Below, piece by piece: positions 13,257 to 39,170 of a stretch of 39,170 nt of DNA; position 1 is the first letter of the stretch, and each line of letters starts with the position of its first letter. The notes beneath the pieces were generated by a model. It made no database searches. It was not told the origin of the DNA and saw nothing but the letters and a program-made list of their open reading frames with translations. Source of the DNA: an uncultured Clostridia bacterium. GTDB taxonomy: Bacteria; Bacillota; Clostridia; Oscillospirales; Ruminococcaceae. The translations under genes and the position numbers were made by a program. The DNA is taken from NCBI GenBank assembly GCA_948465665.1, contig CAOJXI010000002.1:1-39170 (forward strand), given 5' to 3'.

Positions 13257-13278
13257 ATCGAAGTCTGTGGAGGAAAAG

Positions 13279-13755
13279 ATGGACATTACTTTTAAGACAG
13301 AGGATGGAAGGTTTAATTACAGGGCCTGCGCCATTATCTTAAATGGCAGTAAAATCCTGGCCATGCACGATGAACGCTCTCCTTATTTTTATCTTCCAGG
13401 CGGACGGGTTTCCCTGCATGAAACAGCGGAACAGGCAGTCCTTCGGGAATTAAAGGAAGAATTGTGCATTGACGCGGAAATCATCCGCCCATTGTGGCTT
13501 AACCAGAGTTTCTTTACAGAAGTTGTCAGCCAGGAGCGTTTTCACGAAATATGCCTTTACTTTTTAATAGATGCCAGCAAAACCGGATTGTTTTCAAAAG
13601 GGGAATCCTTTACCCTTTATGAAGGGAAACATACAAACAAATTTGAATGGCTGGAAATAGGGCGCCTGCAGGATGAATATTTTTATCCGAATTTCTTAAA
13701 GGAAAAAATTTTCCATTTGCCGGAACACCCGGAATTGCAGGCAGAGTTTGAATAA
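13279..13755 (+). CDS. NUDIX hydrolase
   Basis: Intact NUDIX box GGRVSLHETAEQAVLRELKEELCI. Confidence 0.9.
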   Translation: MDITFKTEDGRFNYRACAIILNGSKILAMHDERSPYFYLPGGRVSLHETAEQAVLRELKEELCIDAEIIRPLWLNQSFFTEVVSQERFHEICLYFLIDASKTGLFSKGESFTLYEGKHTNKFEWLEIGRLQDEYFYPNFLKEKIFHLPEHPELQAEFE

Positions 13756-14339
13756 CGTGAGTTCGACGAAATTTCATGGCTTCCGGTTTTAGGTACGCCA
13801 TCGTCGCAAACCGTTGGTTTGCGACGATGGCTGCAAGAGGAATCTTGGAGGTTTTGTCCAACTCTGCGGAGTTGGACGAAAAGGAAGAAAGCCCGCCATA
13901 ATGGGGATGCCCCAACGAAGCTGGTTTCAATCCCAATCTGATACCACCCCCTGAGCAATTCTCCAGCGGGCTTTATTTTAAATACTGACGAAGTGGTTAG
14001 TTATCAGTCTCTTAGAGCCTGTTTAGGATCTCAACATGTGCGGATTAGCGAGCGGATTTTTTGCCCGGCAAGGCAAAAAACCGCAGCAATCCTGACGGAT
14101 TGCAAGGGTTTTTAACGCAGTCTGGGCGGAAAATCCGCCGCTAAGACGTGCGCGGGGAGATTCTAAACAGGCTCTTAGGCAAGGTTTACCTTGGCTTCAA
14201 GCTTGCTGGGGTATTTCGCGCCTGCGGGCGCGACCAGGGGGCTTTTGAGGAAAGCCCCCTGGACCCGAAACCTTTTTAATCCGCCGTAGCCTATACTCGT
14301 CTTAGCTTATCCCCGCAAATATGCTTTATCGAACTCACG
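13756..14339 (+). mobile_element. Structured non-coding repeat element, copy 1 (MITE-like; interrupted by a nested MITE)
   Basis: TIR CGTGAGTTCGA (13756-13766)/TCGAACTCACG (14329-14339); flanks TTGAATAA at 13748-13755 and 14340-14347; multiple hairpins; homologous to copies 2 and 3. Confidence 0.75.
14015..14174 (+). mobile_element. Nested 160-bp MITE (IS5-like TIRs) inserted at TTA inside repeat copy 1
   Basis: GAGCCTGTTTAGGATCTC (14015-) and GGAGATTCTAAACAGGCTC (-14174) inverted ends; TTA at 14012-14014 and 14175-14177; absent at the equivalent site (CTTCTTAGG / TTTCTTAGG) in copies 2 and 3. Confidence 0.8.
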
Positions 14340-14378
14340 TTGAATAAAGTACAATGATAAAATAACGCAGACCTGGCG

Positions 14379-14401
14379 TTAAGAGCCTAAACAGGCTCTA
14401 A
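14379..14401 (+). repeat. 23-bp palindrome made of the two MITE tips
   Basis: TTAAGAGCCTAAACAGGCTCTAA; same tip sequence (GAGCCTGTTTAG) as the 160-bp MITE. Confidence 0.65.
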
Positions 14402-14436
14402 GCTTTCCAAACAGGTCAAAACGAAGGAGGTTCACT

Positions 14437-17064
14437 GTGTCCATTCCATCTTCTGAAAATCTTTCCCCTATGATGCGGCAGTATTTTGCTGTCAAAGAGC
14501 AGTATGCAGACTGCATCCTGTTTTTTCGGCTCGGCGACTTTTATGAAATGTTTTTCGACGACGCGAAACGGGTTTCCAATGAACTGGAATTAACGCTGAC
14601 TGGCCGGGACTGCGGTTTAAAAGAACGCGCCCCTATGTGCGGCGTGCCATATCACAGTGCAGAATCTTATATTTCCCGCCTTATCAAAAAGGGGTATAAA
14701 GTTGCTATCTGTGAACAGATGGAGGATCCCGCCACAACGAAAGGGATGGTGCGCCGGGAGGTGATACGGGTTGTAACCCCTGGTACAGTTGTTGAAAGCG
14801 CCATGCTGGACGAAGGCAGCAATAATTTTATTGCCAGTATTTACGCGGCAGAAAATGGGATTGGCTTTGCTTTTTCGGATATTACCACAGGCGAGGTTTA
14901 CCTTTGCGATTTGGCAGCCGGGGCAGAGGACAGGTTAAAAAATGAACTGGGGAAAATTGCCCCGTCAGAGGTCATTTTTAATGCGGATTTTACCAAATAT
15001 ACAGAGCTTGGGGCATTTTTAAAAGACCGCCTGCATTGTACCGCTGATTTGATAGAGGACAGCGCTTTTGCATACAATGCCGCCTGCCAGCTCCTATGCC
15101 GCCATTTCAAGGCGGATTCAATCGGGGAAATGGGTTTGTCCGATCTGCTTTACGGCGTTCCGGCGGCAGCGGCGCTTTTGGGGTATGTGCAGAAAACCCA
15201 TGAAGCAGCCGCCAGCCGAATTGTTTCGCTCAACCGGTATTCTGACGCTCAATTTATGAACCTGGATTTAAATTCCCGCCGGAACTTGGAATTGACGGAA
15301 ACCATGCGCAGCCGGGAAAGGCATGGAACCCTTTTATGGGTAATTGATAAAACCAAAACTGCTATGGGCAAGCGGCTTCTCCGCAGCTATGTAGAGCAGC
15401 CCCTGATTAATCCAACTGCCATTAACAAGCGCTTAAACGCAGTGACAGAGCTGTTTGGGGAAACGATGGTACGGGAAGAAATCCGGGAACTGCTGGCGAA
15501 AATTCCAGACTTGGAACGGCTGATGACCCGTGTCATTTACGGGAATATAGGGCCAAGGGAATTAAAAGCCCTGGAGGGAGGGCTTAGGCTTCTTCCTCTT
15601 TTGAAGGAGAAAACTGCTGGTTTGAAAAGTATCTTCTTAAAAGAAACCCATCGTCAGATAGACACTTTAACGGATGTGGCGGACTGTATTTCCTGCGCCA
15701 TACGGGAGGATCCGCCTGCCTTGCTGCGGGAGGGCAATATCATACGCCAGGGGTTCAGCCAGGAATTGGATGAGCTCAGGGATATCCTTTCAAACGCGAA
15801 GAAGTATATTGCAGGGATTGAAGCAGCGGAACGGGAAAAAACCGGTATCAAAAACCTGCGCATCAGCTATAACAAGGTATTTGGCTACTTTATTGAAGTG
15901 ACAAAGTCCTATACTGCCCAAGTGCCGGAAACCTACATCCGCAAGCAGACCCTGACCAACTGTGAACGGTACATAACCCCGGAACTCAAAACCATTGAGG
16001 AAAAAATCCTGGGGGCAGGGGAGAAAATTGCTGCCCTGGAGGTTCATCTGTATGAACAGGTTCGTTCCATGGTTGCCGGTCAGGTAAACCGTATGCAGGA
16101 GACCTCTTCCGCTGTTTCACGGTTAGACGTATATGCCAATCTCGCCCATGTGGCTGTTGAAAATAATTACTGCTGCCCAACAGTAGATTTTTCCGGGGAA
16201 ATCGACATTGACGAGGGCCGCCATCCCGTTGTAGAAAAACTGCTGGAAGGCGGGTTTGTCTCCAACAATACTTTCCTGAATAAAGATTCAGACCGGGTTG
16301 CCATTATTACCGGCCCCAATATGGCTGGAAAATCTACCTTTATGCGGCAGACCGCCTTAATTGTCCTGATGGCGCAGATGGGTTCCTATGTGCCTGCCAG
16401 CCGTGCCCATATTGGGACAGTAGACGGGATTTATACTAGGGTTGGAGCTGCGGACGACCTGGCTTCAGGGCAGTCTACTTTTATGGTGGAAATGAATGAA
16501 GTTTCCTATATCCTGAAAAACGCCACTTCTGACAGCCTTCTGATTCTGGACGAAATCGGAAGGGGAACCTCTACCTTTGACGGGATGAGCATTGCAAGGG
16601 CGGTTGTTGAACATATTGCCGATAAGAAAAAACTGGGGTGCAAAGCGCTTTTCGCTACACACTACCACGAACTTACTGAACTGGAAAACCGGGTAGAGGG
16701 GATTAAAAATTATAATGTCGCTGTTATCAAAAAGGGATATGATATTACCTTTTTGCGGCGCATCATTCCGGGAGGAGCGGATGACAGCTACGGCATTGAG
16801 GTTTCCAGGCTGGCGGGAATCCCGGAAAGCATCCTGAAACGCGCCCATGCTATTTTGGACGATTTGGAACAGGGAAGGGCTGTTGAGCTCCCTAAAAAGC
16901 CAAAGCCGCAGGAAACAATTATGGACGGGCAGCTTACTTTAACCACTGCTGCCGACCATCCTGTAATTTCCCGTATCAGGGCGATTAATTTCGACCAAAT
17001 AACTCCCCTCCAAGCGTTAAACTTACTATATGAACTGAAATCCCTGGCAGATAATGGAAAATAA
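14437..17064 (+). CDS. mutS: DNA mismatch repair protein MutS
   Basis: Full-length 875 aa; N-terminal PMMRQYFAVKEQYADCILFFRLGDFYEMF; Walker A TGPNMAGKSTFMRQ. Confidence 0.98.
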   Translation: MSIPSSENLSPMMRQYFAVKEQYADCILFFRLGDFYEMFFDDAKRVSNELELTLTGRDCGLKERAPMCGVPYHSAESYISRLIKKGYKVAICEQMEDPATTKGMVRREVIRVVTPGTVVESAMLDEGSNNFIASIYAAENGIGFAFSDITTGEVYLCDLAAGAEDRLKNELGKIAPSEVIFNADFTKYTELGAFLKDRLHCTADLIEDSAFAYNAACQLLCRHFKADSIGEMGLSDLLYGVPAAAALLGYVQKTHEAAASRIVSLNRYSDAQFMNLDLNSRRNLELTETMRSRERHGTLLWVIDKTKTAMGKRLLRSYVEQPLINPTAINKRLNAVTELFGETMVREEIRELLAKIPDLERLMTRVIYGNIGPRELKALEGGLRLLPLLKEKTAGLKSIFLKETHRQIDTLTDVADCISCAIREDPPALLREGNIIRQGFSQELDELRDILSNAKKYIAGIEAAEREKTGIKNLRISYNKVFGYFIEVTKSYTAQVPETYIRKQTLTNCERYITPELKTIEEKILGAGEKIAALEVHLYEQVRSMVAGQVNRMQETSSAVSRLDVYANLAHVAVENNYCCPTVDFSGEIDIDEGRHPVVEKLLEGGFVSNNTFLNKDSDRVAIITGPNMAGKSTFMRQTALIVLMAQMGSYVPASRAHIGTVDGIYTRVGAADDLASGQSTFMVEMNEVSYILKNATSDSLLILDEIGRGTSTFDGMSIARAVVEHIADKKKLGCKALFATHYHELTELENRVEGIKNYNVAVIKKGYDITFLRRIIPGGADDSYGIEVSRLAGIPESILKRAHAILDDLEQGRAVELPKKPKPQETIMDGQLTLTTAADHPVISRIRAINFDQITPLQALNLLYELKSLADNGK

Positions 17065-17145
17065 TATTATGATAATACATATGGCAGCGTACAAAATATT
17101 AGATTGGTATCCGGGTCTTGACCATGGCAGAAAGGAAGGAACGGT

Positions 17146-19125
17146 ATGCAGCAAAAGCCTTCGCCCATTCGGGTGCTGGATAAGGAAACGGCAGAATTGA
17201 TTGCAGCAGGGGAAGTTGTGGAACGTCCTGCTTCCATTGTAAAAGAATTACTGGAAAATTCAGTGGATTCTGGGGCGGATGCAATTACCCTTGAAATTCG
17301 TAATGGCGGCGTTACCTTTATTCGTGTTTCGGACAACGGGTGCGGCATCCATCGTGCCGATGTGCCGACAGCCTTTCTCCGCCATGCTACCAGCAAAATT
17401 TCCCAAAAGGCAGATTTGCAGTCCATCCTCACATATGGATTCCGGGGAGAGGCTTTGGCGGCAGTTGCGGCAGTTGCCAAAGTGGAGGTTTTGACCAGGG
17501 CAGAGGACGAGCTTTCCGGCACGCATTACTGTATTGAGGGAGGTTCTCCCATCTGTTGTGAAGACGCGGGGTGTCCTCAAGGAACTTCGATTACTGTCCG
17601 CGACCTGTTCTATAATACCCCAGCCCGTATGAAATTCCTCAAACGGGATTCTGTTGAAACCTCTGCTGTCAGCGCTGTGATAGAAAGGGCTGCTGTTTCA
17701 AATCCCAAAATCGCTATGAAATTTATTGTAAATGGGAATGTGCGGCTCCATACCCCTGGGGACGGAAAACCTCTGTCTGCCATCCATATGGTGTTTGGGA
17801 AGGATTTTTCCGGCGCTCTGCTCCCAGCGGAAAACCGGAACGGGGGAGTAATGGTAAGCGGATTTATTATCCGCCCGGAAGCTGCCCGTTCCAACCGGTC
17901 TATGCAGTATTTTTTTGTCAACGGACGTTATATCCGCTCTAAAATATGCTCCGCTGCATTGGATGAAGGATATAAGGGAAGCGTTATGGCGGGCAGGTTC
18001 GCGGCCTGCGTGCTCAATGTGGAGGTTGACCCATCACAGGTAGATGTAAATGTCCATCCAGCTAAAATCGAAGTCAAATTTTCCGATGAAAAGGCAGTAT
18101 ATGACGCAGTTTACTTTGCGGTACGGTCAGTTCTGCATAAAAATGACCTCAGCCCCCAACTGCAAATGAAAGGCATGGATTTCCATAAGCAAACGTCTTT
18201 TGATTACCGCAGTTCCGCCCCTGCCAGTCCAGCCGGCTATGAGGCAAAAGAAAAGCCCCTTCGGATGAGCGCTCAGGAATACCGCGCCGCAGTGCAGGGG
18301 AAAAATTTGCCCGAACCTCCCCCTGCCGGAGAATTTCCAAATCTCCCGCCAAAACCGAAACAGCCGCCAGCTGCCCCTGCCTATCCAGCTGGTAAGCCTT
18401 TCCTTTTACATGACCGCCCCCCGGAGCTTCTCCAGCAGCAGGATGATGCACCAAATGTTTTAAAAAAGGAAGGGGACAGTCCGCTGCTCCCCCCTCTGAT
18501 CCCAGCAATGGAACCGCCGCCGGAAAACAGCCCGTTTCGGGAAAAGGGGCGTTTTGAGGATGCGCGGATCGTAGGGGAGCTGTTTGAAACTTATCTAGTT
18601 TTGGAACAGGGGGATAGAATCCTTTTGGTGGACAAACATGCGGCCCATGAGCGTTTGCTTTATGAACGCTTTAAGGCGGATGCAGATCAAAGCAGTCGGC
18701 AGTTTCTGCTGGAGCCAGTAACAGTAAACCTTTCCAGCGAGGAATTCGGCGCGCTGGTTCAAAACCAGGATGCTTTACACGGGTCGGGATTTTCCATAGA
18801 GGAATTCGGTTTTAATACGGTTTTGGTACGGGAAGCCCCTATGTCAGCCGATGGTTTTGATTTAGCTGAACTGGTGACAGACCTTGCGCAGCAGCTCCTT
18901 CACAGCCGCAGACATCTTCTCCCGGAAAAAATAGACGACCTGCTGCACAATATCGCCTGCCGCTGCGCTATCAAAGCCCACAACCGGACCTCGAAGGAGG
19001 AATTTGAGGAAATCCTCCGCCTGCTGTCCGAACATGAGGACGTGAAATTCTGTCCCCACGGCCGTCCTATTGCAACGGTGCTGACAAAGCGGGAAATCGA
19101 AAAACAGTTTGGAAGGATTGTTTAA
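17146..19125 (+). CDS. mutL: DNA mismatch repair protein MutL
   Basis: IRVLDKETAELIAAGEVVERPASIVKELLENSVDSGAD, GFRGEAL; C-terminal MutL domain CRCAIKAHNRTSKEEFEEIL. Confidence 0.97.
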   Translation: MQQKPSPIRVLDKETAELIAAGEVVERPASIVKELLENSVDSGADAITLEIRNGGVTFIRVSDNGCGIHRADVPTAFLRHATSKISQKADLQSILTYGFRGEALAAVAAVAKVEVLTRAEDELSGTHYCIEGGSPICCEDAGCPQGTSITVRDLFYNTPARMKFLKRDSVETSAVSAVIERAAVSNPKIAMKFIVNGNVRLHTPGDGKPLSAIHMVFGKDFSGALLPAENRNGGVMVSGFIIRPEAARSNRSMQYFFVNGRYIRSKICSAALDEGYKGSVMAGRFAACVLNVEVDPSQVDVNVHPAKIEVKFSDEKAVYDAVYFAVRSVLHKNDLSPQLQMKGMDFHKQTSFDYRSSAPASPAGYEAKEKPLRMSAQEYRAAVQGKNLPEPPPAGEFPNLPPKPKQPPAAPAYPAGKPFLLHDRPPELLQQQDDAPNVLKKEGDSPLLPPLIPAMEPPPENSPFREKGRFEDARIVGELFETYLVLEQGDRILLVDKHAAHERLLYERFKADADQSSRQFLLEPVTVNLSSEEFGALVQNQDALHGSGFSIEEFGFNTVLVREAPMSADGFDLAELVTDLAQQLLHSRRHLLPEKIDDLLHNIACRCAIKAHNRTSKEEFEEILRLLSEHEDVKFCPHGRPIATVLTKREIEKQFGRIV

Positions 19126-35222: not shown

Positions 35223-35471
35223 ATGTCCAGAATGAACCCTTATTTTGGGCCTTCCGCTTTGCAGAATCCCGAAAAAAATATAAATTCAAATTTATTTGGC
35301 TCCTGTGCTTTTGACGCAGCAGAAGCATGGGAGCGTTTTGCCCATACGGGCGGAATTTCCGATTATCTTCAATATAAGCGTCTGGAAAACCATCGTCTGG
35401 AGGTGACTGCCCATTATGGGGGCGCAGATAAAGACCAATGGGATCATTCTCCAAACCCGTATGATGGGTGA
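35223..35471 (+). CDS. YqzL-like small protein
   Basis: AAEAWERFAHTGGISDYLQYK between era and recO, overlapping recO start; YqzL-type motif. Confidence 0.65.
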   Translation: MSRMNPYFGPSALQNPEKNINSNLFGSCAFDAAEAWERFAHTGGISDYLQYKRLENHRLEVTAHYGGADKDQWDHSPNPYDG

Positions 35472-36171
35472 GGAGGATCGCCTTCTTACCATCCTTACGG
35501 AAAAAGAAGGGGTTCTTACTGCTTATGGGAAAGGTGCCAGACGGTTTAAAACCAAAATGGCATCGGCAACGGAGGCTCTTTCTTACTCAGAACTGATCCT
35601 GTTTCATAATAAGGATCAGTACATATTGGACGGTGCGTCTACCCTCCATATATTTTTCGGTCTGCGCTCCGACATTTTAAAGCTGGCGCTGGGATGTTAT
35701 TTCGGCCAAATTACGGCGGAGCTTGCTCCAAGAGGGGAGCCGTCGGACAAATATACAAGGCTGCTGCTCAATACCCTGTCCTTTTTGGAGAACGGGAAAC
35801 GTCCCGCTGAACTGCTGAAGCCGCTTTATGAATTCAGGCTTTTGTCCATGGCGGGTTACATGCCTGACTTGGTGGGGTGCCGCAACTGCGGCTGTTATGA
35901 AAACGCCGCCATGCTTTTTGATCCGCTGGAGGGGAACCTTCTTTGTCCTGACTGTGCAAAAGAGGACGCTTCAGCAAAAAAATCAATCCCTGTCTCCAAC
36001 AGCGTTTTGGCGGCTATGCGCCATATCATCTATTCAGAACTGGAAAAACTATTCCAGTTCCAGCTCCCTGTTCATGATCTGGAATCTCTCCAGCGGATAG
36101 GGGAAACCTATCTTTTGATACAAACAGATCAAAGTTATACATCTTTGGACTATTATAAGTCTCTGTTTTAA
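35416..36171 (+). CDS. recO: DNA repair protein RecO
   Basis: KTNGIILQTRMMGEEDRLLTILTEKEGVLTAYGKGARR; Cys4 zinc motif CRNCG...CPDC. Confidence 0.95.
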   Translation: MGAQIKTNGIILQTRMMGEEDRLLTILTEKEGVLTAYGKGARRFKTKMASATEALSYSELILFHNKDQYILDGASTLHIFFGLRSDILKLALGCYFGQITAELAPRGEPSDKYTRLLLNTLSFLENGKRPAELLKPLYEFRLLSMAGYMPDLVGCRNCGCYENAAMLFDPLEGNLLCPDCAKEDASAKKSIPVSNSVLAAMRHIIYSELEKLFQFQLPVHDLESLQRIGETYLLIQTDQSYTSLDYYKSLF

Positions 36172-36522
36172 GGTTTTTCCTTCTAGGGACGCCATCTCAG
36201 CAGCCGTTGGCTGTTCCGCTGGCTGCAAGAGGAAACTTTCAGTAAAGAATCCCGCCATATATCCCCCACGGAAGCCAATCTAAACTTGCTGCTTTCTGCA
36301 CCCTCTAAAGAAAATGGCGGGATTCCCATAAGGCTTTAAGTATCTGCTTCTTAGGTAAGGATTCCGTTAGCTTTCAGCGAGCTGGGGTATTTCGCGCCTG
36401 CGGGCGCGACCAAAGGAACTTTTTAGGAAAGTTCCTCTGGACTCTTCAAACCTTTTTAATCCGCCCCAGCTTGTTACTCATATTAGGTTATCCCCGCAAA
36501 TTCGCTTTATCAAACTCATGTT
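36172..36522 (+). repeat. Structured non-coding repeat element, copy 2 (left terminus truncated)
   Basis: Shares acgccat..hairpin..ggctgcaagaggaa, cccgccata, CTTAGG, ctggggtatttcgcgcctgcgggcgcgacc, aacctttttaatccgcc, ttatccccgcaaat..gctttatc.aactca with copy 1. Confidence 0.8.
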
Positions 36523-36549
36523 AAATAAATTAGGAGGCCAAAAACGGCT

Positions 36550-38946
36550 ATGTGGGAAATAGAAAAACATTGCCGGGCACTGGAATTTGACAAGGTATGC
36601 CGGATGCTGGCAGACAACGCTGGCAGCGACGACGCAAAATCCCGCGCCCTGACACTTATTCCAAAAACAGCCCTGGTACAAGTACAAGGGGAAATGAACC
36701 GTACCGAGGATGCACATTCCCTGGCGGCGCGGTACGGGTATCCATACATTCTCAAGCTGAAAAATTGTGAAGACGCTTTAAAACGCGCCCATGCAGGGGC
36801 ATCCATTACGCCGAGGGATTTACTGGATATTGCGCGTATCCTGCAAAGTTCCCGCACATTAAGCGACTGGCGGGGAAGGTGTGAAGAAGATCACACAACA
36901 TTGGACAGCATTTTCCATGATCTTCTGCCAAATAGAACGCTGGAGGATAAGATTACCAGCACGATTCTTTCAGAAGAGGAAATTGCAGACAATGCAAGCC
37001 CGGCACTTGCTGACATCCGCCGGAAAATCCGAATCAGCGAGCAAAGGGTGCGCAGCCAACTGGATGGTCTGATCCATTCCACCGCTTATCAAAAGTATCT
37101 CCAGGAGCCAATTGTCACCATACGTGACGGGCGCTTTGTGGTTCCGGTGAAAGCGGAATACCGCGGCGAGGTCAAAGGCTTAGTCCATGCAAGTTCTGCC
37201 AGCGGTTCCACATTGTTTATTGAACCGATTTCTGTTGTAGAAGCCAATAATGAAATCAAGGTGTTGGAATCCAAAGAAGAAATCGAAATTGAAAGGATTA
37301 TCCTGGAACTTTCCGGCGAGGTTGGCAGCTCTAAAGACAACATTCTGCAAAGTTATGATGCTGTTATTGACCTGGATCTCTATTTCGCAAAGGCAATGCT
37401 GGCAGAGCAGATGAACGCTACAGCCCCGGAAATAACAGACGACGGGATTGTAATATTGAAAAACGCCCGCCATCCGCTGATTGATAAAAACAAAGTAGTC
37501 CCTACAAATATCAGCCTTGGAGAAACATTCGACACATTAGTTATTACAGGCCCCAACACAGGCGGAAAAACTGTTGTGCTGAAAACGCTGGGGCTGTTTA
37601 CATTGATGGCTATGTCAGGGCTGATGATTCCAGCCGGTTTTGGAAGCAGAGTTTCAGTCTTTTCCCAAGTGCTGGCGGATATAGGGGATGAGCAAAGCAT
37701 TGAACAGAGCCTGTCCACTTTTTCCGCCCATATGACAAAAATTATCCGTATCCTTCAGGATACCGATGAACACACATTGGTTCTGCTGGATGAACTTGGG
37801 GCGGGGACTGATCCCGTGGAAGGGGCGGCGCTGGCGGTTTCCATTATTCAAAAACTTCGTTCCAGGACAGCGAAGATTGCCGCTACCACCCATTATCCTG
37901 AAATCAAGATGTATGCCCTCCAAACTGAAGGCGTGGAAAATGCCTGCTGCGAATTTGACGTGCAGACCCTTCAGCCGACTTTCCGGCTGCTGATCGGTGT
38001 TCCGGGAAGGTCAAATGCTTTTGCCATTAGTGAACGGCTTGGAATGGATCCCGACGTAGTGGAAAACGCCAGGGCTTTGATTTCCGGTGAGGATGCCCGT
38101 TTTGAAGATGTTGTTTCTGAATTGGAGCGTTCCCGCCAGGAATTAGAACGCGAGAAACAGGAAGCAAATATTCACACCATTCAGGCTGCAAATCTTCGGA
38201 AAGAGCTTCAGGATGAAAAAGCCCGGATTGACGTGATGCGGGAACGCGAAATGGAAAAGGCGCGGATGGATGCCCAGAAAATGCTGGATGACATCCGGCT
38301 CGAAGCAAAAAAGATGATGGACGAACTGGAAGAACTTAAAAAGCAGAAAGACAATGAAGCATTTTCCCAGATGGCTGCCGATGCTAGGGTATCTTACCGA
38401 ACCAGTATGAAAAAACTGGAACGTTTAGCTGACCCGGTATTTAAGCGGACGGGGCAGACGAACTATACACCTGAAAGGGAAATCCGCCGCGGGGATTCTG
38501 TTATCCTTCCAGGTGTAAAAAAATCCGGGGTCGTCCTTACAAATCCCGATCAAAATGGTTATGTTACCGTTCAGGCGGGCGTTATGAAAACAAAAGTGAG
38601 AACATCGGAATTAAGATTGGCTGGACAACCGGATAAAAAAACCACCGTGAATTCCCGCACTGGTTCCAATATTCGCGCTAATGTCGGACGGGGAACAAGG
38701 GATGTTCGTACTGAGGTCGATGTAAGAGGGAAGACTGTCCAAGAAGCGCTTTTGGATGTGGATCAATTTATTGATAATGCGGTACTTTTAGGTTTGAATA
38801 TTGCTACAATTATTCATGGGAAGGGAACAGGTACGCTACGCGCTGCTGTCCATGAACATTTGAGGGGCCATAGGAATGTCAGAAGCTTTCGGCTCGGGGT
38901 TTATGGAGAAGGGGAGAACGGCGTTACTGTTGTGGAATTGAAATAA
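36550..38946 (+). CDS. mutS2: Endonuclease MutS2 (MutS2 ATPase plus Smr domain)
   Basis: VITGPNTGGKTVVLKTLGLFTLMAMSGLMIPA; C-terminal Smr VDVRGKTVQEALLDVDQFID...IIHGKGTGTLR. Confidence 0.97.
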   Translation: MWEIEKHCRALEFDKVCRMLADNAGSDDAKSRALTLIPKTALVQVQGEMNRTEDAHSLAARYGYPYILKLKNCEDALKRAHAGASITPRDLLDIARILQSSRTLSDWRGRCEEDHTTLDSIFHDLLPNRTLEDKITSTILSEEEIADNASPALADIRRKIRISEQRVRSQLDGLIHSTAYQKYLQEPIVTIRDGRFVVPVKAEYRGEVKGLVHASSASGSTLFIEPISVVEANNEIKVLESKEEIEIERIILELSGEVGSSKDNILQSYDAVIDLDLYFAKAMLAEQMNATAPEITDDGIVILKNARHPLIDKNKVVPTNISLGETFDTLVITGPNTGGKTVVLKTLGLFTLMAMSGLMIPAGFGSRVSVFSQVLADIGDEQSIEQSLSTFSAHMTKIIRILQDTDEHTLVLLDELGAGTDPVEGAALAVSIIQKLRSRTAKIAATTHYPEIKMYALQTEGVENACCEFDVQTLQPTFRLLIGVPGRSNAFAISERLGMDPDVVENARALISGEDARFEDVVSELERSRQELEREKQEANIHTIQAANLRKELQDEKARIDVMREREMEKARMDAQKMLDDIRLEAKKMMDELEELKKQKDNEAFSQMAADARVSYRTSMKKLERLADPVFKRTGQTNYTPEREIRRGDSVILPGVKKSGVVLTNPDQNGYVTVQAGVMKTKVRTSELRLAGQPDKKTTVNSRTGSNIRANVGRGTRDVRTEVDVRGKTVQEALLDVDQFIDNAVLLGLNIATIIHGKGTGTLRAAVHEHLRGHRNVRSFRLGVYGEGENGVTVVELK

Positions 38947-38987: not shown

Positions 38988-38995
38988 GTTTATAT

Positions 38996-39170
38996 TATGT
39001 GAGATAAAGCTCATTTGCGGGAGAAAGCTAAGATGAGTACAAGCTGGGGCGGATTAAAAAGGTTTCGGGTCTAGGGGGCTGTTCCTCAAAAGCCCCCTAG
39101 TCGCGCCCGCAGGCGCGAAATACCCCAGCAGGCTTAAAGCCAAGGTAAAGCTGACCTAAGAAACTGAAAA
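38996..39170 (-). repeat. Structured non-coding repeat element, copy 3 (opposite orientation, continues past window end)
   Basis: Reverse complement contains ctggggtatttcgcgcctgcgggcgcgac, hairpin CTAGGGGGCT..AGCCCCCTAG, acccgaaacctttttaatccgcc, ending in CTCACAT. Confidence 0.8.

What the first reader, a model, noticed from the sequence alone, without database searches (positions are those of the whole stretch)
13756..14339. A three-copy family of large, multi-hairpin intergenic elements (structured MITE or ncRNA)
Non-coding elements at 13756-14339, 36172-36522 and 38996-39170 (inverted) share a common architecture. It runs: 5' hairpin (gccat..atggctgcaagaggaa), a long stem beginning cccgccata, a TTAGG site, an invariant core CTGGGGTATTTCGCGCCTGCGGGCGCGAC (itself a hairpin), a variable-sequence hairpin, invariant ACCTTTTTAATCCGCC, and a conserved right end. 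None encodes a plausible protein. Three copies in 39 kb implies many per genome. The family name, if any, is unknown to me.
Basis: seen in the sequence. Interest (0 to 1): 0.85.

Follow-up and report, generated by a model that had tools for sequence, protein, structure and literature searches.

The report
Jumping elements carrying a conserved fold
A gut bacterium's genome is peppered with well over a hundred copies of a gene-less jumping DNA element, and inside it sits a folded cassette that other, differently ended short repeats in distant Clostridia also carry, which suggests an undescribed structured RNA (or single-stranded DNA) module that spreads by hitch-hiking.

Summary
The core occurs 132 times in the host draft genome (2.54 Mb, 70% complete; backwards-pattern control 0). 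The window copy at 13756-14339 is an insertion. It has inverted ends CGTGAGTTCGA/TCGAACTCACG and an 8-bp target duplication (TTGAATAA), and the syntenic site in a sister species is empty. So it is a MITE (a small non-autonomous transposon), built as a mosaic: a second, IS5-type MITE (14015-14174) and a third unit (13885-13986) are nested inside it.

The "invariant core" plus "variable hairpin" form a structured cassette found in many uncultured Clostridia: a hairpin TTTCGC-N-TGCG-N-GCGACCA, then a second hairpin. One clade also has a covarying loop/3' pseudoknot. Covariation beats all 500 shuffles, and outer-stem changes are 82 G-U against 3 A-C. The cassette sits inside repeats with at least three unrelated end types. 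It matches no Rfam family, shows no orientation or gene association, and several carrier genomes have no Y1 (REP/RAYT-type) transposase. The mobilising transposase and any transcript were not found.

Best reading: a trans-mobilised MITE family carrying an old, selected single-strand fold, probably RNA.

The parts
13748..13755 (.). left target-site duplication TTGAATAA of copy 1 (overlaps the end of the upstream NUDIX gene)
   Evidence: sequence; repeated at 14340-14347; single and diverged in the empty site of G002
13756..14339 (+). copy 1, complete element between inverted repeats CGTGAGTTCGA / TCGAACTCACG, with nested insertions
13756..13770 (+). left terminal inverted repeat of copy 1
   Evidence: the 18-base end motif occurs 148 times in the genome at up to 3 mismatches, control 1
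13797..13831 (+). 5' hairpin GCCATCGTCGCAAACC-GTT-GGTTTGCGACGATGGC
   Evidence: sequence and self-match; variants
13856..13877 (+). second hairpin GTCCAACTC-TGCG-GAGTTGGAC
   Evidence: paired variants such as GTCCAACGT-TGCG-ACGTTGGAC
13885..13986 (+). inserted module (stem AAAGCCCGC / GCGGGCTTT) flanked by 10-bp near-repeats GACGAAAAGG (13875-13884) and GACGAAGTGG (13987-13996)
   Evidence: absent from sister copies L044, L056, L076, which read GGACGAAGCGGTTAG
14015..14174 (.). nested IS5-type MITE GAGCCTGTTTAG...CTAAACAGGCTC, with 3-bp duplication TTA (14012-14014, 14175-14177)
   Evidence: other copies lack it at TCTCTTAGG; an IS5-like transposase gene between similar ends in the same genome
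14205..14290 (+). structured cassette of copy 1: closing stem GCTGGGG (14205-14211) with GCCGTAGC (14283-14290), enclosing the two hairpins
   Evidence: class-wide model R1 hit 14214-14268, 46.7 bits, E 5.9e-12; fold z -3.6; wobble asymmetry
14216..14233 (+). hairpin H1 TCGCGCC-TGCG-GGCGCGA
   Evidence: covariation
14234..14262 (+). hairpin H2 (variable sequence, constant CCA...TGGA ends)
   Evidence: covariation
14270..14285 (+). invariant ACCTTTTTAATCCGCC
14325..14339 (+). right terminal inverted repeat TTTATCGAACTCACG
14340..14347 (.). right target-site duplication TTGAATAA
36172..36520 (+). copy 2 (between recO and mutS2); left inverted repeat missing; long stem GAATCCCGCCAT (36247-36258) / ATGGCGGGATTC (36314-36325)
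   Evidence: site empty in G001 and G002
36381..36470 (+). structured cassette of copy 2: closing stem 36381-36387 / 36463-36470, H1 36392-36409, H2 36410-36440
   Evidence: R1 hit 36390-36449, 39.6 bits; fold z -4.65
38995..39170 (-). copy 3, inverted, downstream of mutS2, cut by the contig end
39071..39118 (-). cassette hairpins of copy 3: H1 39101-39118, H2 39071-39100
   Evidence: R1 hit 39065-39120, 42.5 bits; fold z -4.72

Best explanation
It is a high-copy family of non-autonomous DNA transposons (MITEs) in an uncultured Oscillospiraceae species. A transposase acting in trans recognises the inverted ends CGTGAGTTCGATAAA and inserts copies into AT-rich intergenic sites, duplicating 8-9 bp. 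Shown here: inverted ends, target duplications in three copies, and empty orthologous sites. Inferred: a DDE-type enzyme acting in trans, which was not found. Copies are mosaics because other small elements insert into them and hairpin modules are swapped among copies. Each copy carries an older cassette: a closing stem around hairpin H1 (TTTCGC-N-TGCG-N-GCGACCA) and hairpin H2, whose loop pairs with a downstream TTCGG/TTCGC in the larger clade. The cassette is kept folded as a single strand, and it also rides in repeats with unrelated ends in other Clostridia. The fold is most likely exercised in RNA when transcription crosses the element. There it would stabilise or insulate transcripts, or act as a small RNA, making insertions tolerable. 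That last step is inference; I give it about 0.4, against about 0.15 for a role as a single-stranded DNA recognition structure.
For: Copy number 132 against a control of 0; end motif 148 against 1. Perfect duplications: copy 1 ttgaataa 8 bp, L320 ttatttaa 8 bp, G001 L284 tcatcttaa 9 bp. The mutS upstream site is empty in G002, and the mutS2 upstream site is empty in G001 and G002. No own-genome core lies inside a called ORF and there is no strand bias. Cassette: 42 double-change cells against 9.9 in shuffles, 0 of 500; wider model-found set 129 against 27.9, covariation score 0.281 against 0.106 shuffled and at most 0.092 slid. H1 inner pair occurs as CG, GC, UA and AU. Pseudoknot swap CCGN/TTCGG to GCGN/TTCGC. 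Linker length equals stem length minus 4 in all standard cases. Closing stem of 92 own copies: 82 G-U against 3 A-C. Three end types, mutually exclusive: G000, and bin18 14 of 22 with both ends, RGIG5986 11 of 35, crossed controls 0.
Against: No transposase with these ends was found in the four genus genomes for IS256-type (PF00872) or DDE_Tnp_1 (PF01609) families; other families were not searched. Only 3 of about 20 end-to-end copies show clean duplications. Outside the closing stem, wobble is not preferred: 23 G-U against 15 A-C. Locus-specific pairing of the outer flanks was not significant, 899 of 5000 permutations. No promoter or terminator beyond expectation in copy 2. No transcript data. 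The distribution is patchy: 7 of 292 class genomes, although that search scored at most 19 candidates per genome.
Confidence: 0.7

Rival explanations
1. REP/BIME-like palindromes: the hairpins are recognised as single-stranded DNA by a Y1 (HUH, RAYT/IS200-type) transposase, and the covarying fold is that recognition structure.
For: Hairpin arrays, mosaic structure, a fold conserved on one strand, many intergenic copies.
Against: Y1_Tnp (PF01797) was not found in G001, G002 (99% complete, 20 cores), RGIG5986, bin18, G063 or G066. The G000 elements have inverted ends and 8-9-bp duplications, as DDE elements do.
Confidence: 0.1
2. Plain MITEs: the hairpins are passive palindromes with no selected function, and covariation reflects gene conversion or palindrome correction at the DNA level.
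For: High copy number, mosaic swaps, mostly perfect Watson-Crick stems, no general wobble preference in H1/H2, patchy distribution.
Against: A pseudoknot that covaries, a linker that scales one-to-one with stem length, a conserved UNCG-type loop and one-sided G-U in the closing stem are not expected of palindrome correction. The cassette persists in repeats with unrelated ends.
Confidence: 0.25
3. A cis-regulatory RNA (riboswitch, leader or terminator-type element) controlling neighbouring genes.
For: Stable fold with a pseudoknot in one clade; many copies lie just upstream of genes, as with mutS and mutS2 in the window.
Against: No orientation bias relative to flanking genes and all four gene arrangements found; no conserved neighbour family across loci; sister species lack the element at the same genes.
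Confidence: 0.05

Closest known systems
Structured bacterial MITEs such as ERIC, RUP, Correia/NEMIS, and QMITE of Coxiella
   Same: Short, gene-less, inverted ends, 7-9-bp duplications, intergenic, stem-loop transcripts predicted; QMITEs yield small RNAs (review PMC10969869)
   Different: Here an internal cassette is conserved by covariation across Clostridia and is shared by repeats with unrelated ends
REP/BIME palindromes and REPINs
   Same: Hairpin modules, mosaics, many intergenic copies
   Different: No Y1/RAYT gene in several carrier genomes; DDE-like ends and duplications in the host species
BOX, RUP and SPRITE repeats of pneumococcus (PMC3049150)
   Same: Modular interspersed repeats with predicted RNA folds (lead from the literature, not compared by sequence here)
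   Different: Different host group; the cassette here is spread across Clostridia
IS5-family MITEs (IS1031-like group, named from memory)
   Same: This is what the nested insert at 14015-14174 is: ends GAGCCTGTTTAG, 3-bp TTA duplication
   Different: The main element has different ends and an 8-9-bp duplication

Membership tests
MITE (non-autonomous DNA transposon) | terminal inverted repeats | tested here: met
   CGTGAGTTCGA / TCGAACTCACG; 148 occurrences of the end motif, control 1
MITE (non-autonomous DNA transposon) | target-site duplication | tested here: met
   8, 8 and 9 bp perfect in three copies; most other copies have lost or lack it
MITE (non-autonomous DNA transposon) | empty orthologous site | tested here: met
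   mutS upstream in G002; mutS2 upstream in G001 and G002
MITE (non-autonomous DNA transposon) | no transposase gene inside | tested here: met
   elements of about 225-590 bp between ends; the 3-kb pair in L312 is two copies around a transporter operon
MITE (non-autonomous DNA transposon) | autonomous partner with the same ends | tested here: inconclusive
   none among PF00872 and PF01609 hits in the genus; other families not searched, genome 70% complete
REP / RAYT system | Y1 transposase (RAYT) encoded in the genome | tested here: not met
   absent in G001, G002, G061, G062, G063, G066; one in G000
Rfam RNA family (any of 4227) | score at or above a family's gathering threshold | tested here: not met
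   0 hits in the window; relaxed scan of 7 related loci gave nothing on the cassette
cis-regulatory RNA / riboswitch | consistent orientation and associated gene family | tested here: not met
structured RNA (as a class) | covarying base pairs above controls | tested here: met
   one-sided wobble in the closing stem
structured RNA (as a class) | it is transcribed | not testable with these tools
   no RNA-seq available
IS5-type MITE (nested insert only) | IS5-like ends, 3-bp duplication and a candidate partner in the genome | tested here: met
   GAGCCTGTTTAG ends, TTA duplication; L355 carries a DDE_Tnp_1 gene between GAGTCTATTCAAAATC / GATCTTGAATAGGCTC ends

The most novel reading that the evidence does not exclude
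The cassette is an undescribed structured RNA class of Clostridia: a UNCG-capped hairpin followed by an H-type pseudoknot whose linker tracks the stem one-to-one, as if lying in its groove. It multiplies by being captured into several unrelated MITE families, so the RNA rather than the transposon ends is the unit that persists.
Probability: 0.35. Interest if true: 0.78.

Novelty: new variant of a known kind. Interest (0 to 1): 0.55.

Why it matters
Structured MITEs are usually species-bound and their folds are written off as palindromes. Here the inner fold outlives the ends: it covaries across Clostridia and is found inside repeats with at least three end types. That makes it testable whether a selected RNA module, and not the transposon, drives the spread of such repeats. 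It also matters practically. In the host draft genome about 44 of 54 plus-strand cores listed by the search lie within about 300 bp of a contig end, so this element is a main cause of fragmentation of such metagenome assemblies.

Tried and rejected
Rfam at gathering threshold and relaxed: no family. Exact-sequence literature search: no paper. REP/RAYT: Y1 transposase missing in several carriers. Partner gene beside the cassette: none recurring. Orientation bias: none. Locus-specific complementarity of the outer flanks in other species: not significant, so I do not claim it. Wobble preference in H1/H2: not significant. Autonomous element: the one long end-to-end pair, L312 4239-7265, is two copies flanking a transporter operon; IS256 and DDE_Tnp_1 genes of the genus do not carry these ends. 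Phages and plasmids: no plasmid match, one short phage-record match; viral contigs gave 1 and 11 stretches, several with the full fold and some chance hits.

Full report
What was checked. The three copies and their landmarks are in the sequence. The family is not three copies but over a hundred. The core pattern occurs 132 times in the host draft genome G000 (2.54 Mb, 287 contigs, 70% complete), with 0 for the reversed control. The end motif occurs 148 times, with 1 in the control. Counts are approximate because most copies lie at contig ends.

Host. The window's genome has three held relatives of the same genus. Full elements occur in G000 and a few times in G001; G002 and G003 have mainly the core in other surroundings.

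Mobility. In G002 the interval between the NUDIX gene and mutS is otherwise alike but lacks the element...CAGAGATTTAATTACATGATAAAATAACG..., while G000 reads ...CAGAGTTTGAATAA[element]TTGAATAAAGTACAATGATAAAATAACG... The site of copy 2, upstream of mutS2, is empty in both G001 and G002. Two further copies have perfect duplications: L320 with ttatttaa and G001 L284 with tcatcttaa. Other end-to-end copies show none or partial ones, as expected of old or recombined copies. No core of the own genome lies inside a called ORF and orientation relative to flanking genes is not fixed. No autonomous element was found, so trans-mobilisation is inferred.

Mosaic anatomy. Copy 1 contains a nested 160-bp MITE (14015-14174) with ends GAGCCTGTTTAG and a TTA duplication; uninserted copies read TCTCTTAGG at that place. 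The same genome holds a DDE_Tnp_1 transposase gene between similar ends (L355), so this insert is of IS5 type. A second inserted module (13885-13986) lies between GACGAAAAGG and GACGAAGTGG; copies L044, L056 and L076 have the single GACGAAGCGG. Copy 2 has a different long stem at the corresponding place. Hairpin loops are also replaced: the unit CTGGCGGG(T/C)T...GCTGAACT occurs in the loop of H1 in some copies and of the second hairpin in others.

The cassette. Cores from G001-G003 already show paired changes in H1. The scan pattern fixes part of H1, so I searched again by H2 plus pseudoknot and with a covariance model R1. These found H1 stems free of that constraint, for example TCGCTCCT-TGCG-AGGAGCGA, TCGCCCAT-TGCG-ATGGGCGA and TCGCCTC-TGCG-GAGGCGA, with loops TGCG, TACG and TTCG. 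On 42 distinct cores, 98.7% of cells pair and 42 double changes are seen against 9.9 in shuffles (0 of 500). On the wider set 129 are seen against 27.9, covariation score 0.281 against 0.106, and sliding the partner never exceeds 0.092; that alignment is fitted to the model and leans towards it. The three window copies match R1 at 46.7, 42.5 and 39.6 bits and fold with z scores of -3.6 to -4.7.

Pseudoknot. In the larger clade the H2 loop CCGN faces a downstream TTCGG, and GCGN faces TTCGC (CCGA/TTCGG 47 and GCGA/TTCGC 7 cases, one mixed case), again seen in an unrelated viral-collection contig, L369. The linker between H2 and this strand has exactly the stem length minus four: ACC for 7 bp, ACTC for 8, AAACC/ACTCC/ACCCC for 9 and ACCCCC for 10. 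Its letters mirror the 3' strand of the stem. This fits a linker lying in the groove of the stem, which is my inference. In the host genus the pseudoknot is replaced by AAACCTTTTT after H2, and I do not claim one there.

Which strand, DNA or RNA. In 92 own copies the closing stem departs from Watson-Crick by 82 G-U and 3 A-C pairs. The copies are related and nearly all changes are on the 3' side, so this is not 82 events, but wobble occurs at six of seven positions and A-C at one. In H1/H2 of the wider set the difference is not significant, 23 to 15. So one strand appears to be the folded one; RNA is likelier than single-stranded DNA but not proven.

Different vehicles. In MAG BRZ_BV bin18 the cassette lies between ends like CAGACTGTTGACAAAG and CTTTTTCAACAGTCTG (14 of 22 copies with both), often flanked by duplicated whole terminator-like hairpins, up to 30 bp identical. 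In RGIG5986 11 of 35 lie between ATACTGATCTCAG and CTTGAGATTAGTAT, with no clear duplication; crossed controls are 0. In G000 the ends are CGTGAGTTCGATAAA. The cassette thus outlives its vehicles. No neighbour gene recurs, and a Y1 transposase is missing in several carriers, which speaks against a REP/RAYT system.

Known or new. No Rfam family matches and no held paper prints the core sequence. Surveys of stem-loop repeats and of structured RNAs in human microbiomes exist (PMC2267715, PMC8040213, PMC12306157); their supplementary tables could not be searched here, so an unnamed listing there cannot be excluded. As a kind it is a structured MITE; the cassette shared across end types is the new part.

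Verdict. Observation confirmed, interpretation partly right. Mobility and covariation are shown. The identity of the transposase, transcription and the role of the fold are inferred or open.

Noticed in passing
window 14383-14398: A 16-bp palindrome GAGCCTAAACAGGCTC flanked by TAA on both sides, absent in G002 (GTGTTACGCTTTCC): looks like a minimal remnant or footprint of the IS5-type MITE.
   Followed up: partly
L355 (G000:C76, about 1340-2700): An IS5-like element with a split DDE transposase, ends GAGTCTATTCAAAATC / GATCTTGAATAGGCTC and TAA flanks, next to a solo nested-type MITE: candidate mobiliser of the MITE inserted in copy 1.
   Followed up: partly
L312 7033-7300: A copy of the element sits between an ABC ATPase gene and its permease gene, with the start of the permease (ATG..TGGCCCTTTGAAAACGACACC) repeated on both sides of it.
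   Followed up: no
L217, L236, L243, L270 (bin18): The bin18 element is flanked by long direct repeats that are whole terminator-like hairpins (up to 30 bp identical), as if it targets and duplicates a terminator.
   Followed up: partly
L184, L195, L197, L205, L221, L232, L256: The H2 loop is often replaced by another long hairpin, in several cases with a GCCACTGGC apex: a further small repeat family of rumen Clostridia.
   Followed up: no
L360, L365, L367: Tandem doubling of the H2-plus-pseudoknot unit behind a single H1.
   Followed up: no
G000 contig ends: By hand count, 44 of 54 listed plus-strand cores lie within about 300 bp of a contig end: the repeat breaks the metagenome assembly.
   Followed up: partly
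window 13267-19122 and 35416-38946: The window's copies flank DNA-repair genes (mutS, mutL, recO, mutS2, by Pfam); with over a hundred copies genome-wide this is probably chance.
   Followed up: no
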